A stretch of DNA of 43,665 bases. It comes from Thermoanaerobacter sp. (GTDB lineage: Bacteria; Bacillota; Thermoanaerobacteria; Thermoanaerobacterales; Thermoanaerobacteraceae). The translations under genes were made by a program, and so were the position numbers. Below the pieces are notes generated by a model, which was not told where the DNA came from, made no database searches, and was given only the letters and a program-made list of their open reading frames with translations. The stretch spans positions 1-43,665 of the forward strand of contig JADBKJ010000005.1 of NCBI GenBank assembly GCA_014896455.1, read 5' to 3'. Position 1 is the stretch's first letter; each line of letters opens with the position of its first letter. Below, one piece after another: positions 1,484 to 21,646 of this stretch.

Positions 1484-1586
1484 GCCCGAAGGTCGAGCTT
1501 TGAATTTGTCGCTTTGGAACATCAGGCGGCTGATGCAAAATAACTCTTTCCCTTTTGAATATTTTTAACCTTTGTCCAGCAAACTG
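1484..1586 (-). mobile_element. Truncated copy D of the terminator-associated repeat
   Basis: This is one end, about 103 bp, of the same repeat family as 4498-4759, 17647-17909 and 21273-21537, in reverse orientation. It ends with GTCCAGCAAACTG, matching the element terminus, and carries the internal CGCTTTGGAACATC block. The small internal stem reads CATCAG/CTGATG here, whereas the other copies have CATCG/CGATG. The other half of the element is missing. It abuts a degraded copy of the DUF1015 terminator hairpin and gene, so it was duplicated together with that locus. Confidence 0.8.
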
Positions 1587-1617
1587 AAAGCACCTTAAAA
1601 TGAAAAGGTGCGCTTTT
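1587..1617 (-). terminator. Degraded copy of the DUF1015-gene terminator hairpin
   Basis: The stem-loop arms GCACCTT and AAGGTGC are the same as the hairpin after the intact DUF1015 gene at 21246-21272, here in inverted orientation. It separates repeat copy D from the DUF1015 pseudogene, preserving the order gene-hairpin-element seen at the intact locus. It probably no longer serves a gene. Confidence 0.6.
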
Positions 1618-2276
1618 AATGGTCGTGAATAAATAATCCGCTTCTTAGTTTTCCAGGCTCAAACCAGGTAGACTTAGGCATTATCATTCCCGCATCGGCA
1701 ACAACAATTAAATCTTCAACTGTTGTCGGGTACATAGAAAAAGCTACTTTCATATCTTCCTTAACTCTTCTTTCTAATTCTTCTAAGCCTCTAATTCCGC
1801 CTACAAAATCAATCCTTTTATCAGTTCTCGGATCTTTTTATCCCCAAAATAGGATCCAAAAAGATTTTATCATCAAGATGGATACATCTAAACTCTATCG
1901 GATCCGATGGGTTAAAAGTACCTTCTTTGAATTACATTTTTCCTACCTGATTTATTTTTTACTGCCAATACTTTTTCCCTATAATTAACATCACCTGTAA
2001 TTGCGTATAAGTCTTCATAGATAATAGATAGGTCGATAAATTCACTTTCGGAATAACCGTTTTAAATCCTTTACCACTCTATTATATGAAGTAAGAAACT
2101 TCATCATTGGGCACTAACACTGCTAAAATAGTTAAACTCTTCATCTCTCTCGCTTTCTAATCTACGATTTTTTGTTCTACTCGCCTCTTTAAGCCTACTT
2201 TTACCGAAGCAGCAGCCCGATGATGTCCATCTGCAATGTAAAGATAGTCTATTTCCTTAAAAATATAAGTAATTTT
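1612..2276 (-). pseudogene. Degenerate inverted copy of the DUF1015 gene (C-terminal half)
   Basis: On the minus strand this matches the 3' half of the intact DUF1015 gene (about 20580-21245), including the segment encoding the IADGHHR motif near 2210-2235 and the C-terminal residues near 1630-1720. Frames are broken. One extra T lies in the run near 1837-1842, and about 75 bp present in the intact gene (around 20885-20960) is missing near 1930. The 5' half is replaced by phage-derived DNA at about 2277. With hairpin and repeat copy D it forms an inverted duplication of the 21-kb locus. It is not expected to make protein. Confidence 0.85.
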
Positions 2277-2637
2277 CACCTACTTTTTCATAGCTCTTTT
2301 TCAACTTTTCAGCAGCTTTTAGCCTTTTTATCAATGGAGCTTGCTCATTGTAAAGCACTTCTCTTGCTCTTCGCCTTGTTGTCTGTATCGTTACCTTATC
2401 ACGGATTTCTTTGTAGTCCTGCTTCTCTTTCTCGCTTCGTGGATCCTCGGTTAACGATGTATTACTATACTTTTCTGTTTCTTCAGCATTAGGGTCAAGT
2501 TCTCGCACATATGGCATTAGTACATGTCTACAGTTCGGATGACGGGGAATAACTACGCCATCTTTCCCATATTTCGGATACCTCTTATCTTTACCTGAAA
2601 GGCTGTATACTTTACCCTGGATTGGAGCACATAAGAT
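2277..2637 (-). pseudogene. Fragment of a phage minor capsid protein
   Basis: A minus-strand frame without a proper start reads as the C-terminal part of a phage minor capsid / head morphogenesis protein (Phage_min_cap2-like). It contains CAPIQGKVYSLSGKDK followed by PRHPNCRH, a Cys-His segment typical of this family. A charged helical stretch follows, with TEDPRSEKEKQ and RRAREVLYNEQAPLIKRLKA. A stop (minus-strand TAA, plus-strand 2638-2640) cuts the N-terminal side, and the C-terminus runs into the DUF1015 pseudogene. No other structural phage gene lies nearby, so this is a relic of a lost prophage. The family call rests on recalled motif resemblance. Confidence 0.6.
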
Positions 2638-4474: not shown

Positions 4475-4497
4475 AGACAGAGCGTAATAGCCTGTCT
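4475..4497 (+). repeat. Left copy of a 23-bp hairpin target duplication (MCP terminator stem)
   Basis: A stem-loop with arms AGACAG/CTGTCT plus an inner GC/GC pair lies 19 bases after the chemoreceptor stop. The identical 23 bp recur at 4760-4782, on the other side of element A. The left copy lacks a T-tract; the right copy keeps it. The simplest reading is insertion of A at the junction between hairpin and T-run, with duplication of the whole hairpin. Confidence 0.85.
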
Positions 4498-4759
4498 CAG
4501 TTTGTTGACAAAGTTTAAAAAACATTCAAAGGAGATATTTTGCATCGTCGCTCCGATGTTCCAAAGCGACAAAACTAAACTCGACTTTCAGGTTCCGGCA
4601 GGGTACCCCGTCAGGCGACGTCCTGTCTCAGGTGCCCGCCTCCGCCCTCCTTGGCTTCGGCCCTGCCTCCACCCTCAGTCTCGCTAAGTTTTGTTACCGC
4701 TTTGTCACAGTCGCTCCGATTGCAAAATATCTCCTTTACGAAAGTTTGTCTACAGTCTG
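4498..4759 (+). mobile_element. Copy A of a ~262-bp MITE-like repeat, GC-rich core
   Basis: The termini are CAGTTTGTTGACAAAG at the left and, reverse-complemented from the right, CAGACTGTAGACAAAC. This imperfect inverted repeat continues inward to the shared block AAAGGAGATATTTTGCA. The core (about 4570-4700) is strikingly GC-rich compared with its surroundings and includes GGCTTCGGCC, a three-pair stem with a TTCG loop. It is flanked by exact 23-bp direct repeats (4475-4497 and 4760-4782). No open frame in it looks coding. It lacks a transposase, so it would need to be mobilised in trans. Copies C (17647-17909) and B (21273-21537) share the ends. Confidence 0.85.
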
Positions 4760-4792
4760 AGACAGAGCGTAATAGCCTGTCTTTTTATTTTT
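4760..4792 (+). terminator. Right hairpin copy with T-tract (displaced MCP terminator)
   Basis: The same hairpin as 4475-4497 is followed directly by TTTTTATTTTT. This is the functional half of the original intrinsic terminator, now 285 bp further from the chemoreceptor stop codon, so transcripts would include element A before ending. Confidence 0.75.
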
Positions 4793-9636: not shown

Positions 9637-9712
9637 GCTGGCGTAGCTCAATAGGCAGAGCAGCTGACTTGTAATCAGCAGGTTGAAGGTTCAAGTCCTT
9701 TCGCCAGCTCCA
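9637..9712 (+). tRNA. tRNA-Thr (anticodon TGT)
   Basis: A full cloverleaf can be drawn. The acceptor stem GCTGGCG pairs with CGCCAGC, the D arm is GCTC/GAGC, the anticodon stem GCTGA/TCAGC holds loop CTTGTAA, and the T arm carries TTCAAGT. The discriminator is T and CCA is encoded (9710-9712). From 9666 to the end the sequence is repeated exactly at 17304-17350, so this gene is the integration site of the island and its 3' half is supplied by attL. Confidence 0.97.
9666..9712 (+). repeat. attL: 47-bp direct repeat within tRNA-Thr
   Basis: The anticodon-loop to CCA portion of tRNA-Thr is identical to 17304-17350. Such a tRNA 3'-end duplication is the normal footprint of a tyrosine-recombinase element that rebuilds the tRNA on insertion. 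Crossover probably occurs within the anticodon-loop side of the shared segment, but the exact point cannot be read. Confidence 0.93.
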
Positions 9713-9728
9713 GTTAAATAGCATGTTT

Positions 9729-17303: not shown

Positions 17304-17350
17304 GACTTGTAATCAGCAGGTTGAAGGTTCAAGTCCTTTCGCCAGCTCCA
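17304..17350 (+). repeat. attR: 47-bp direct repeat of the tRNA-Thr 3' half
   Basis: Exact copy of 9666-9712. It lacks the tRNA 5' half, so it is not a functional tRNA. It marks the right end of the element. Confidence 0.93.
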
Positions 17351-17375
17351 TTTTTTTAATTCTGTGGCTCAAATT

Positions 17376-17646: not shown

Positions 17647-17909
17647 CAGACTGTAGACAAACTTTCGAAAATAGGATATCTTGCAATCTGTGCGACTTGT
17701 GACAAAGCGGGGTAACAAAACTTAGCGAGACTGAGGGTGGAGGCAGGGCCGAAGCCAAGGAGGGCGGAGGCGGGCACTAAGACAGGACGTTGCCTGACGG
17801 GGTACCCTGCCAGAGCCCGAAAGTCGAGTTTAGTTTTGTCGCTTTGGAACATCGGAGCGACGATGCAAAATATCTCCTTTGAATATTTTTTAACTTTGTC
17901 AACAAACTG
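17647..17909 (-). mobile_element. Copy C of the MITE-like repeat, reverse orientation
   Basis: 263 bp, close in sequence to copy A throughout, including the GC-rich core and the GGCTTCGGCC hairpin, with scattered substitutions. Its right edge abuts a stem-loop with arms GCAGCTTT and AAAGCTGC (17911-17933) inside the Rad50-like remnant. The left flank has no matching hairpin, so the target duplication was lost, probably in the same deletion that removed the 5' part of that gene. Confidence 0.85.
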
Positions 17910-17917
17910 AGCAGCTT

Positions 17918-18637
17918 TTATTAACAAAGCTGCAGGAGATAAGAGAAAAAGGTACAAAAATTGCTACAGAGCTAAAAGCTGTTATTGAAGAAAACAAAAA
18001 AGCAGAAAAGAAATTTCAATAAAAAGTAAACAAATACAGAAAAGCCCTTGAGATAAAAATTAAGAGGCTAGAAAATGCGCTAAATACAAATGCAAACAAA
18101 GAACAAATACAGCAAATAATACGGCAAATAGAAAGGCTCAGATTTGAAGAAAGAGAAGTAATAAGCCACAACGAAAGTATTAAAGCACTGCTCAGACAAA
18201 AAGAAGAAGCAAAAAGAAAGCTCAAAGAAGTAGAAGAAGATATAAAACTGACCGAACAAAAAATAAACGAAGTAAAAACTTTGATAGAATACGCAAAATC
18301 ATTCAATACCAAAAAGCTAGAGCTTGAGGCAGCAGAGATAAACAAATATCTGGACAAAGTATCCCTTCAGCTCTGGAAAATTGTCCAGAGCACAGGAGAG
18401 ATCAAAGACGACTTCAAAATTCTCTACGATGGGAAAGAATTCAACATGTTTTCTTATTCTGAACGAATCAAAGCAGGCCTTGAAATTGGAAATCTTATAA
18501 TGGGTCTGACAAACATAAAATTCCCAATTTTTATAGACAATGCAGAAAGCATTACGGCATATTCAATACCGGATACTCAAATAATCGAAGCCAGAGTAAA
18601 GGAAGGTACTGCAGAACTGGAAGTTATAAATGTTTAG
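17918..18637 (+). pseudogene. C-terminal remnant of a Rad50/SMC-like phage ATPase
   Basis: The frame starts directly at repeat copy C and encodes a long coiled coil. It has one in-frame TAA (18020-18022), after which the same frame continues. A C-terminal ATPase lobe follows: FSYSERIKAGLEIGNLIMGL, then FPIFIDNAESIT (Walker B/D-loop-like) and QIIEARVKEG. The N-terminal lobe with Walker A is absent, so it is non-functional. Proteins of this shape in phages often accompany recombination nucleases. Part of it (about 18215-18335) is also found, degraded and inverted, inside repeat copy B. A terminator follows. Confidence 0.75.
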
Positions 18638-19997: not shown

Positions 19998-21245
19998 ATG
20001 GCTACAGTAAAACCCTTTAAGGCAATAAGGCCTGCACCAGGATTGGCAAATAAAATAGTGTCCTTGCCTTATGACGTCGTAAATACCGAAGAAGCGAGAA
20101 ATTTGGCTAAAGATAATCCTTATTCATTTCTTCATGTGGATAGAGCAGAAATAGATTTAGCTCCTTCTATAAATCCTTACGATGAAATAGTTTATGAAAA
20201 AGCGAGAGAAAATTTTGACAGAATGCTTAAAAAAGGGCTGTTAATAAAAGATAATGAGGAGAACTATTACATCTATAGAGAAATAATGAATGGCAGGAGT
20301 CAAGTGGGATTGGTAGCGACTGTTTCGATTGATGAATATTTAGAAGGAATAATTAAAAAACATGAGCTTACTCTGCCGGAGAAAGAACAGGATAGAATAA
20401 ATCACATGGATTACTGTGATGCTCACACCAGTCCAGTTTTTTTAACGTACAAAGCCAATCAAGAGCTTAAAAAGTTGTTAAATAGCTGGATGGGGAGCAA
20501 AAATCCTGTATATGATTTTACATCAGAGGACGAGATAAGACATACAGTATGGATTATAGATGACAAATCCTTAATAAATAAAATTACTTATATTTTTAAG
20601 GAAATAGACTATCTTTACATTGCAGATGGACATCATCGGGCTGCTGCTTCGGTAAAAGTAGGCTTAAAGAGGCGAGAACAAAATCGTGATTATAAAGGAG
20701 ATGAAGAGTTTAACTATTTTTTAGCAGTGTTAGTGCCCAATGATGAAGTTTTTATCATGCCATATAATAGAGTGGTAAAGGATTTAAACGGTTATTCCGA
20801 AAGTGAATTTATCGAAAAAATAGAAGAGAAATTTGAAGTAGAGAAATGTAATGAAGGCCAGCCTTTCAATCCTTCGCAAAAGCACACTTTTGGTATGTAT
20901 CTATCAGGAAATTGGTACAAACTTACTGCCAAAGAAGGTACTTTTAACCCATCGGATCCGATAGAAAGTTTAGATGTATCCATCTTACAAAAAAATCTTT
21001 TGGATCCTATTTTGGGGATAAAAGATCCGAGAACTGATAAAAGGATTGATTTTGTAGGCGGAATTAGAGGCTTAGAAGAATTAGAAAGAAGAGTTAAGGA
21101 AGATATGAAAGTAGCTTTTTCTATGTACCCGACAACAGTTGAAGATTTAATTGCTGTTGCCGATGCGGGAATGATAATGCCTCCTAAGTCTACCTGGTTT
21201 GAGCCTAAACTAAGAAGCGGATTATTTATTCACGAATTGAGCTAA
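19998..21245 (+). CDS. DUF1015 family protein
   Basis: A 415-residue cytoplasmic protein of the DUF1015 family. It starts ATVKPFKAIRPAPGLANKI and has SLPYDVVNTEEAR, HELTLPEKEQDR and YIADGHHRAAAS. The DGHHR motif resembles the ParB/Srx-fold nucleotide-binding motif seen in some free-serine kinases. A kinase-like role is possible, but the family's function is not settled as far as I know. AGGAGG precedes the ATG. A decayed inverted copy of its 3' half lies at 1612-2276. Its terminator hairpin starts right after the stop and has been duplicated by insertion of repeat copy B. Confidence 0.88.
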   Translation: MATVKPFKAIRPAPGLANKIVSLPYDVVNTEEARNLAKDNPYSFLHVDRAEIDLAPSINPYDEIVYEKARENFDRMLKKGLLIKDNEENYYIYREIMNGRSQVGLVATVSIDEYLEGIIKKHELTLPEKEQDRINHMDYCDAHTSPVFLTYKANQELKKLLNSWMGSKNPVYDFTSEDEIRHTVWIIDDKSLINKITYIFKEIDYLYIADGHHRAAASVKVGLKRREQNRDYKGDEEFNYFLAVLVPNDEVFIMPYNRVVKDLNGYSESEFIEKIEEKFEVEKCNEGQPFNPSQKHTFGMYLSGNWYKLTAKEGTFNPSDPIESLDVSILQKNLLDPILGIKDPRTDKRIDFVGGIRGLEELERRVKEDMKVAFSMYPTTVEDLIAVADAGMIMPPKSTWFEPKLRSGLFIHELS

Positions 21246-21272
21246 AAGCACCTTTTCATTTTAAGGTGCTTT
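21246..21272 (+). repeat. Left copy of the 27-bp terminator hairpin (target duplication)
   Basis: Stem arms AAGCACCTT and AAGGTGCTT flank a short loop, directly after the DUF1015 stop codon. The same 27 bp recur at 21538-21564 with the T-tract. The copy here is followed at once by the element end CAGTTTGTTGAC. Confidence 0.88.
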
Positions 21273-21537
21273 CAGTTTGTTGACAAAGGTTAAAAATATT
21301 CAAAGGAGATATTTTGCATCGTCGCTCCGATGTTCCAAAGCGACAATCTCTGCTCGCCTCAAGCTCTAGCTTTTGGTATTGAATGACGCCTGGGCATGTC
21401 TTATCATTTTTCTTACTTCGTTTATTTTTTGTTCGGTCAGTTTTATATTTCACTTCTTTGAGCTTCTTTTTGCTTCTTCTTTTACAAGTCGCACCGATTG
21501 CAAAATATCTCCTTTACGAAAGTTTGTCAACAGTCTG
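21273..21537 (+). mobile_element. Copy B of the MITE-like repeat, with a captured gene fragment
   Basis: 265 bp with the same ends as copy A (left CAGTTTGTTGACAAAG, right GTCAACAGTCTG). The GC-rich core is replaced by about 140 bp (around 21346-21487). Read on the minus strand, this matches 18215-18335 of the Rad50-like remnant, with shared strings such as CTGACCGAACAAAAAATAAA and AGCTAGAGCTTGAGGC, with indels. It is flanked by exact 27-bp hairpin duplications. Either the element picked up a neighbouring gene segment, or the end sequences were recombined onto it. Confidence 0.85.
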
Positions 21538-21574
21538 AAGCACCTTTTCATTTTAAGGTGCTTTTTATTTTTTA
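21538..21574 (+). terminator. Right hairpin copy with T-tract (displaced DUF1015 terminator)
   Basis: Same hairpin as 21246-21272, followed by TTTTTATTTTTT. The functional terminator now lies about 290 bp downstream of the DUF1015 stop codon. Confidence 0.85.
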
Positions 21575-21646
21575 AGTGAAAAAGTTCTATTATTTAAAAA
21601 TTTGTACTAATTATATATTGAAGGATAATTTAGGGGAGCTGGTTAT

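What the first reader, a model, noticed from the sequence alone, without database searches (positions are those of the whole stretch)
4475..4782. A small mobile repeat that inserts beside a terminator and duplicates the whole hairpin (copy A)
Seen: the 262-bp element 4498-4759 has imperfect terminal inverted repeats and is flanked by an exact 23-bp direct repeat that is the stem-loop of the chemoreceptor terminator. Only the right copy keeps the T-tract. Copy B repeats the pattern with a different 27-bp hairpin. Target duplications this long are unusual; members of the IS1634 group are known for long, variable duplications, while most IS elements make 2-14 bp. The insertion separates stem from T-run yet restores a terminator downstream, so the host gene tolerates it. 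Inference: the mobilising enzyme recognises a folded or cruciform hairpin, not a sequence.
Basis: partly seen in the sequence, partly recalled or inferred. Interest (0 to 1): 0.75.

Follow-up and report, generated by a model that had tools for sequence, protein, structure and literature searches.

The report
Jumping element that duplicates target hairpins
In a heat-loving bacterium a small jumping DNA element lies, at dozens of places, between two full copies of a hairpin-forming sequence that is single in relatives lacking the element at the sites checked, likely because the enzyme that moves it recognises the hairpin's folded shape rather than its letters.

Summary
The genome is a Thermoanaerobacter. 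The 262-bp element is one of many short copies (79 end pairs read here, 75 of 240-270 bp). At 107 sites (47 own genome, 57 congeners, 3 in a related MAG) such elements lie between direct repeats of 16-33 bp; 105 of these repeats fold as stem-loops, centred on the hairpin dyad to the base. Related genomes have one hairpin at the empty site for both window copies and four others. Intact IS1182-family transposons in congeners carry nearly the same ends and also duplicate hairpins (11 of 14 copies read). So do relatives in Sutcliffiella, Staphylococcus simulans, Acetoanaerobium, Rhizobium and ten more genomes of the phylum; 21 of 23 such transposases on a tree fall in one clade. IS1272, in the same family, is published to target stem-loops but to delete them. 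Best model: strand transfer at the two 5' feet of a folded target, so target shape sets the duplication length. Folding in the cell, joint positions and trans-mobilisation are inferred. Hairpin targeting by IS1182 elements was known; whole-hairpin duplication appeared only as a drawn possibility in the papers I read. IS databases could not be consulted.

The parts
4475..4497 (+). left copy of target hairpin A (23-bp direct repeat), separated from its T-tract
   Evidence: exact match to 4760-4782; single copy in the G008 empty site
4498..4759 (+). copy A: 262-bp element with IS1182-type ends, too short for a transposase gene
   Evidence: 40 near-full copies at 91-100% identity, itself included, among the 40 scored of 128 candidates in the own genome; ends nearly shared with intact IS1182 elements
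4760..4782 (+). right copy of hairpin A, followed by the T-rich tract
21246..21272 (+). left copy of target hairpin B (27 bp)
   Evidence: single copy in G009 (length of the T. wiegelii record) and G008
21273..21537 (+). copy B: 265-bp element with the same ends and a different core
21538..21564 (+). right copy of hairpin B with T-rich tract
17647..17909 (-). third copy (263 bp); hairpin on one side only, no duplication detected, flanks possibly rearranged
1505..1611 (-). fragment of an element end with a copy of hairpin B, part of a rearranged duplicate of the site-B region

Best explanation
The 262-bp element shares its ends almost exactly with intact IS1182-family transposons of sister Thermoanaerobacter species and sits between two complete copies of a stem-loop that is single in the empty site, likely because the transposase that moves it joins its 3' ends to the two 5' feet of a folded (hairpin or cruciform) target. 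Shown: the near-identical ends, the hairpin duplication at scores of sites, the dyad-centred boundaries, single-hairpin empty sites, and the same pattern around a clade of IS1182 transposases. Inferred: that the target is folded when attacked, that the joints lie at the 5' feet on the two strands (so that gap repair copies the whole hairpin on each side), and that the short copies are moved in trans by such a transposase. The own genome holds one PF13751 match, a decayed copy of the autonomous element.
For: 107 filled sites, repeat length 16-33 bp, 105 with dG below -4 kcal/mol, median z -6.7; moving the window by one base drops complementarity of the four outer positions from 0.83 to 0.34-0.36. 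Empty sites with one hairpin: A in G008 at 97.5% over 510 nt, and at 75-79% in seven more sister genomes; B in G009 98.8%, G008 98.4%, G002 96.7%, G007 94.9%; four more sites. Autonomous IS with ends CAGACTGTTGACAAA and CAGTTTGTTGACAAA: 9 of 12 distinct copies plus both of two fetched later, so 11 of 14, with exact or one-mismatch hairpin repeats of 19-32 bp. Transposase NF033551 IS1182 at 489.5 bits, cut-off 270. Same pattern in Sutcliffiella, S. simulans, Acetoanaerobium, Rhizobium (4 of 8 plasmid loci) and 16 of 70 phylum loci, from 10 genomes. Tree: one group of 28 rows, 21 with hairpin repeats, support 100/99. A separate insertion into terminator B in G005 in the opposite orientation.
Against: No folded DNA or transposition was observed. 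In closed congener genomes 14 of 48 copies lack a scorable repeat; by eye six of these have similar hairpins on both sides with indels or several changes, four are unclear, two lack both ends, and two have a group II intron-like end on one side. Two of the autonomous copies (L212, L229) show no hairpin repeat. Pairing does not always end where the repeat ends: in 65 of 107 sites one or more further Watson-Crick pairs lie outside it. Repeats shorter than about 12 bp were not scored, so short duplications would have been missed. Sites L057 and L193 fold weakly. 54 of 70 phylum IS1182 loci gave no long repeat.
Confidence: 0.8

Rival explanations
1. Terminators are only safe sites: the transposase inserts widely with long, loose duplications, and selection leaves the insertions that fall between genes.
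For: T- or A-rich tracts flank most hairpins, as in terminators (98 of 107 with 5 or more of 8).
Against: Selection for location cannot centre the duplication on the dyad to the base, make its length vary with the hairpin, or give the same result in unrelated hosts.
Confidence: 0.07
2. The enzyme recognises a sequence feature of terminators (A-tract, GC arm, T-tract) on duplex DNA and cuts symmetrically around it, without any folding.
For: 86 of 107 repeats begin with A and 92 of 107 end with T.
Against: Arms of 6-15 bp and loops of 3-11 nt show no common sequence by eye; a duplex reader would need to measure a variable 16-33 bp span. Nine of 107 targets have fewer than 5 T or A of 8 at the flank, and a GC-rich Rhizobium hairpin is also used.
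Confidence: 0.1
3. The two hairpins come from recombination or assembly between copies, not from target duplication.
For: In the draft own genome several copies carry two different hairpins, and one subfamily has variable one-sided flanks.
Against: Closed genomes show the same repeats (34 of 48), and empty sites with one hairpin are found for matching flanks.
Confidence: 0.02

Closest known systems
IS1272 / TnSha1 (IS1182 family), stem-loop replacing transposition (PMC5678879, PMC4923244)
   Same: IS1182-family transposase; targets are stem-loops, often terminators, without sequence consensus.
   Different: IS1272 is reported to remove the stem-loop without target duplication; here the whole stem-loop is duplicated. 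A transposase that I take to be IS1272 (open frame beside fabI in L385, not named in that record) is about 40% identical to a subgroup in which I found no long duplication and 20-27% to the four best-scoring hairpin duplicators. PMC5678879 draws whole stem-loop duplication (Fig 13 pathway b) as a possibility, not for IS1272.
IS1182-like element of Thermoanaerobacter kivui in TnCO-1 (PMC12056078)
   Same: Same genus and family; linked by the authors to mobilisation in the laboratory.
   Different: The passages read discuss an 85.8-kb circle, not hairpin duplication; they state that IS1182-related elements act with or without duplication and on a target sequence or a target structure.
Bacterial MITEs
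   Same: Short, multi-copy, inverted ends shared with an autonomous IS.
   Different: Most known cases (recalled) have short target duplications of fixed length; here 16-33 bp, varying with the target hairpin.
Group IIC introns (recalled: insert after terminator hairpins)
   Same: Use terminator hairpins as targets; a group II intron-like element sits directly after terminator B in G001.
   Different: RNA-based; no hairpin duplication.

Membership tests
IS1182 family | transposase above the curated NCBIfam score (NF033551) | tested here: met
   489.5 bits against cut-off 270 for both congener transposases tested; Pfam PF13751, PF05598, PF01609 for one of them
IS1182 family | catalytic DDE triad | tested here: inconclusive
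   D273 is invariant and D146 and E400 are 90% or more conserved in 20 relatives; assigning them as the triad is my reading
IS1182 family | window element itself belongs to the family | tested here: inconclusive
   its two ends match those of the intact IS at 16 and 14 of 16 bases and a decayed IS with these ends is in the own genome (L061); mobilisation in trans was not tested
IS1272-type inverted-repeat replacement | target is an inverted repeat | tested here: met
   105 of 107 sites
IS1272-type inverted-repeat replacement | target stem-loop is lost and no duplication is made | tested here: not met
   two hairpins when filled, one when empty
IS1634 family | transposase of the IS1634 family | tested here: not met
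   IS1182 is the only NCBIfam model above its cut-off; no IS1634 model among the six hits listed
MITE | short, many copies, terminal inverted repeats, no transposase gene | tested here: met
   75 of 79 end pairs are 240-270 bp, ends of copy A match at 12 of 16; too short for a transposase of about 500 aa
MITE | moved in trans by the autonomous partner | not testable with these tools
   needs a transposition assay

The most novel reading that the evidence does not exclude
A clade of DDE transposons in Bacillota and an alphaproteobacterium whose target-duplication length is not a property of the enzyme but is written by the target's fold: both strand transfers fall at the feet of an extruded hairpin pair, so every jump copies a whole stem-loop and seeds the genome with doubled terminators. 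Another subgroup of the family, typified by IS1272, attacks the opposite feet and deletes the hairpin.
Probability: 0.6. Interest if true: 0.82.

Novelty: new variant of a known kind. Interest (0 to 1): 0.74.

Why it matters
In textbook DDE transposition (general knowledge) the duplication length is a constant of the synapse. Here it varies two-fold within one element family and goes with the target hairpin, which makes a long-standing question (does DNA hairpin or cruciform extrusion occur at terminators in living cells, and can an enzyme read it) directly testable. It gives a natural counterpart to IS1272: same family, same kind of target, opposite outcome. It also offers a way to find terminators and extruding palindromes by their insertion scars, and raises the possibility that some hairpins seen beside IS1182-type elements are captured host terminators rather than parts of the element.

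Tried and rejected
IS1634 membership: rejected by the transposase family. Selection keeps the T-tract copy while the other decays: not supported, 7 against 8 of 15 decidable sites among 31 with mismatches. Lagging-strand single-strand targeting: no fork-orientation bias seen, 20 of 48 copies (origin at coordinate 0 and terminus at half assumed, not measured). Solved relatives: none by sequence at E 0.01. Literature: ten full-text searches; no listed paper, judged from title, abstract start or the passages read, reports whole-hairpin duplication as an observation. Only the top of long lists was shown, and ISfinder, TnPedia and most subscription reviews are not held, so earlier curation of such repeats cannot be excluded.

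Full report
What was checked. The element at 4498-4759 and its 23-bp flanking repeat are exactly as described, and copy B (21273-21537) has an exact 27-bp hairpin repeat. A third copy (17647-17909, minus strand) has a hairpin on one side only.

The host. A pattern scan with the element end hit Thermoanaerobacter wiegelii Rt8.B1, T. thermocopriae, Thermoanaerobacter sp. A7A and a Clostridia MAG. The window's own genome (G000, 2.22 Mb, 33 contigs, 90% complete) has nine congeners among those searched, eight of them with near-full matches to the element; the ninth (G003) has only weaker, partial ones. G009 has the length of the T. wiegelii record.

Copies and flanks in the own genome. A whole-genome search scored 40 of 128 candidates, and these 40 are near-full copies at 91-100% identity; the 16-bp end occurs 104 times with up to two mismatches. 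From the loci fetched I read 79 distinct end pairs, 75 of them 240-270 bp and one the decayed IS. 66 of the 79 have a hairpin abutting both ends, 11 one end, 1 none by the strict rule, and 1 is at a contig edge; random positions have an abutting hairpin on a given side in 319 of 3000 trials. With end pairs allowed to be up to 2.5 kb apart, 47 own-genome copies have a matched repeat.

Statistics. Over all loci fetched by then there are 107 distinct sites with a matched repeat of 16-33 bp: 47 own, 57 in Thermoanaerobacter relatives, 3 in the Clostridia MAG; 96 hold a short element and 11 an IS. 76 repeats are exact, 21 have one mismatch, 8 two and 2 three. The rule for a match asked only for similar flanks of 12 bp or more (score 11 or more), not for folding. 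105 of 107 fold with dG below -4 kcal/mol (median -11.7), median z against shuffles -6.7. In single-copy reconstructions the four outermost positions on each side are complementary in 83% of cases; shifting the window by one base gives 34-36%. So the two joints lie symmetrically about the hairpin axis. Arms run from 6 to 15 bp and loops from 3 to 11 nt, without a shared sequence by eye. Long T- or A-runs are found on either side of the element, so orientation to the terminator looks free.

Closed genomes. To exclude assembly effects I took the 12 best element copies of each of four single-contig congeners: 34 of 48 have a scorable repeat. Of the other 14, by eye of the printed flanks, six have similar hairpins on both sides with indels or several changes, four are unclear, two lack both ends, and two have a group II intron-like end on one side.

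Empty sites. Joined flanks of A and B were searched in the genus. Site A is uninterrupted with the identical single hairpin in G008 (97.5% over 510 nt), and uninterrupted at 75-79% in seven further genomes. Site B is uninterrupted in G009 (98.8%), G008 (98.4%), G002 (96.7%) and G007 (94.9%), each with one hairpin, and more distantly in G004 and G003, where the hairpin itself has diverged; in G006 the site did not align across. In G005 the same terminator holds another element in the opposite orientation with its own, slightly diverged hairpin duplication, and in G001 a group II intron-like element (my reading of the sequence) follows the hairpin. Four further sites have empty counterparts with one hairpin at 77-97% identity, among them an autonomous IS site in G006 that is empty in T. 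thermocopriae.

The autonomous element. PF13751 is found in 10 of 10 genus genomes. In the 29 loci fetched, 12 distinct IS copies with both ends were read (1560-1568 bp; 11 of 12 with an open frame of 500-550 aa); nine have exact or one-mismatch hairpin repeats of 19-32 bp, one (L223/L227) has two hairpins that differ in the loop, two (L212, L229) have none. Two further copies fetched later both have exact 27-bp repeats (L247, L248). The transposase is IS1182 family (489.5 bits, cut-off 270). The own genome holds a decayed copy with nearly the same ends directly beside a short element (L061). Three terminators that carry a short element here carry the full IS in G008 (L049/L236, L059/L234, L073/L226).

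Beyond the genus. Of eight plasmid loci of IS1182 relatives, four have exact hairpin repeats: Sutcliffiella 30 bp, S. simulans 27, Acetoanaerobium 24, Rhizobium leguminosarum 23. Two Enterococcus faecium loci (one annotated ISEfa7), ISSep1 and ISCfr1 do not. The Rhizobium site is matched over at least 80% of the joined query in 107 of 116 records with a match; the two that I read have one hairpin, one base different from the filled copies. Of 70 IS1182 loci from the phylum, 16, from 10 genomes, have repeats of 20-35 bp, and all 16 are hairpins; the other 54 gave none. The search maximised end similarity plus repeat length, so repeats of 5-9 bp listed there are not evidence, and a missing repeat may also mean misplaced ends. 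On a tree of 67 of 75 transposases (those with more than 60 bits to the reference), 21 of 23 hairpin-duplicating rows fall in one group of 28 (support 100/99); the other two (G263) lie elsewhere, so the trait may have arisen or been lost more than once. A transposase that I take to be IS1272 was compared by BLAST only: about 40% identical to a subgroup in which I found no long duplication, 20-27% to the four best-scoring hairpin duplicators.

Mechanism. A DDE transposase joins the element's 3' ends to two target phosphates, and the stagger is copied on both sides (general knowledge). [quoted passage not shown] PMC5678879 (abstract, passages, sections 22 and 29 part 1 read) draws this as pathway b, and proposes joining at the 3' feet with loss of the stem-loop for IS1272. 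PMC4923244 (passages) reports blunt deletions of hairpins, several of them terminators, by IS1272/TnSha1 and cites a review that some IS1182 members target palindromes; I have not seen that review. PMC12056078 (outline, abstract and passages) links an IS1182-like element of T. kivui to a mobile 85.8-kb circle. The data here are what pathway b predicts. Not shown: folding in the cell, joint positions on each strand, and trans-mobilisation.

Novelty. Structure targeting by IS1182 elements is known. Whole-hairpin duplication as the rule, its dyad precision, its spread through a clade and its use by a high-copy short element were not found in ten searches of the held library; databases of IS elements could not be consulted.

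Open points. One own-genome subfamily carries donor flank of variable length on one side of the element, which may mean one-ended transfer or assembly chimeras. PMC2965389 (passages) describes terminators upstream of transposases of families such as ISBma2 as intrinsic parts of the IS; whether some are captured target hairpins I did not test.

Noticed in passing
window 21345-21483 and 18199-18339: The core of copy B is 86% identical (inverted) to the stretch at 18199-18339, so this element seems to have captured a piece of another sequence between its ends.
   Followed up: no
window 1505-2280 and 20580-21611: An inverted, decayed duplicate of the gene tail, hairpin B and an element end lies about 19 kb away.
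   Followed up: no
loci L029, L040, L051, L052, L055, L058, L061, L068, L071, L098, L126, L134 (own genome): Copies next to hairpin AGAGAGTATACGAAATACTCTC carry flank of variable length on one side and, in most, a different hairpin on the other; some flanking genes look cut near their 3' ends. One-ended transfer or assembly chimera.
   Followed up: partly
G001, loci L290 and L283: A group II intron-like element of about 1.9 kb sits directly after the terminator-B hairpin: two unrelated kinds of element use one terminator.
   Followed up: partly
window 9666-9715 and 17304-17353: A 50-bp direct repeat (98%) that looks like a tRNA 3' half may mark the ends of an integrated element.
   Followed up: no
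L311 against L386 and L387: Both duplicated Rhizobium hairpins differ from two empty-site hairpins by one base that lengthens the stem.
   Followed up: no
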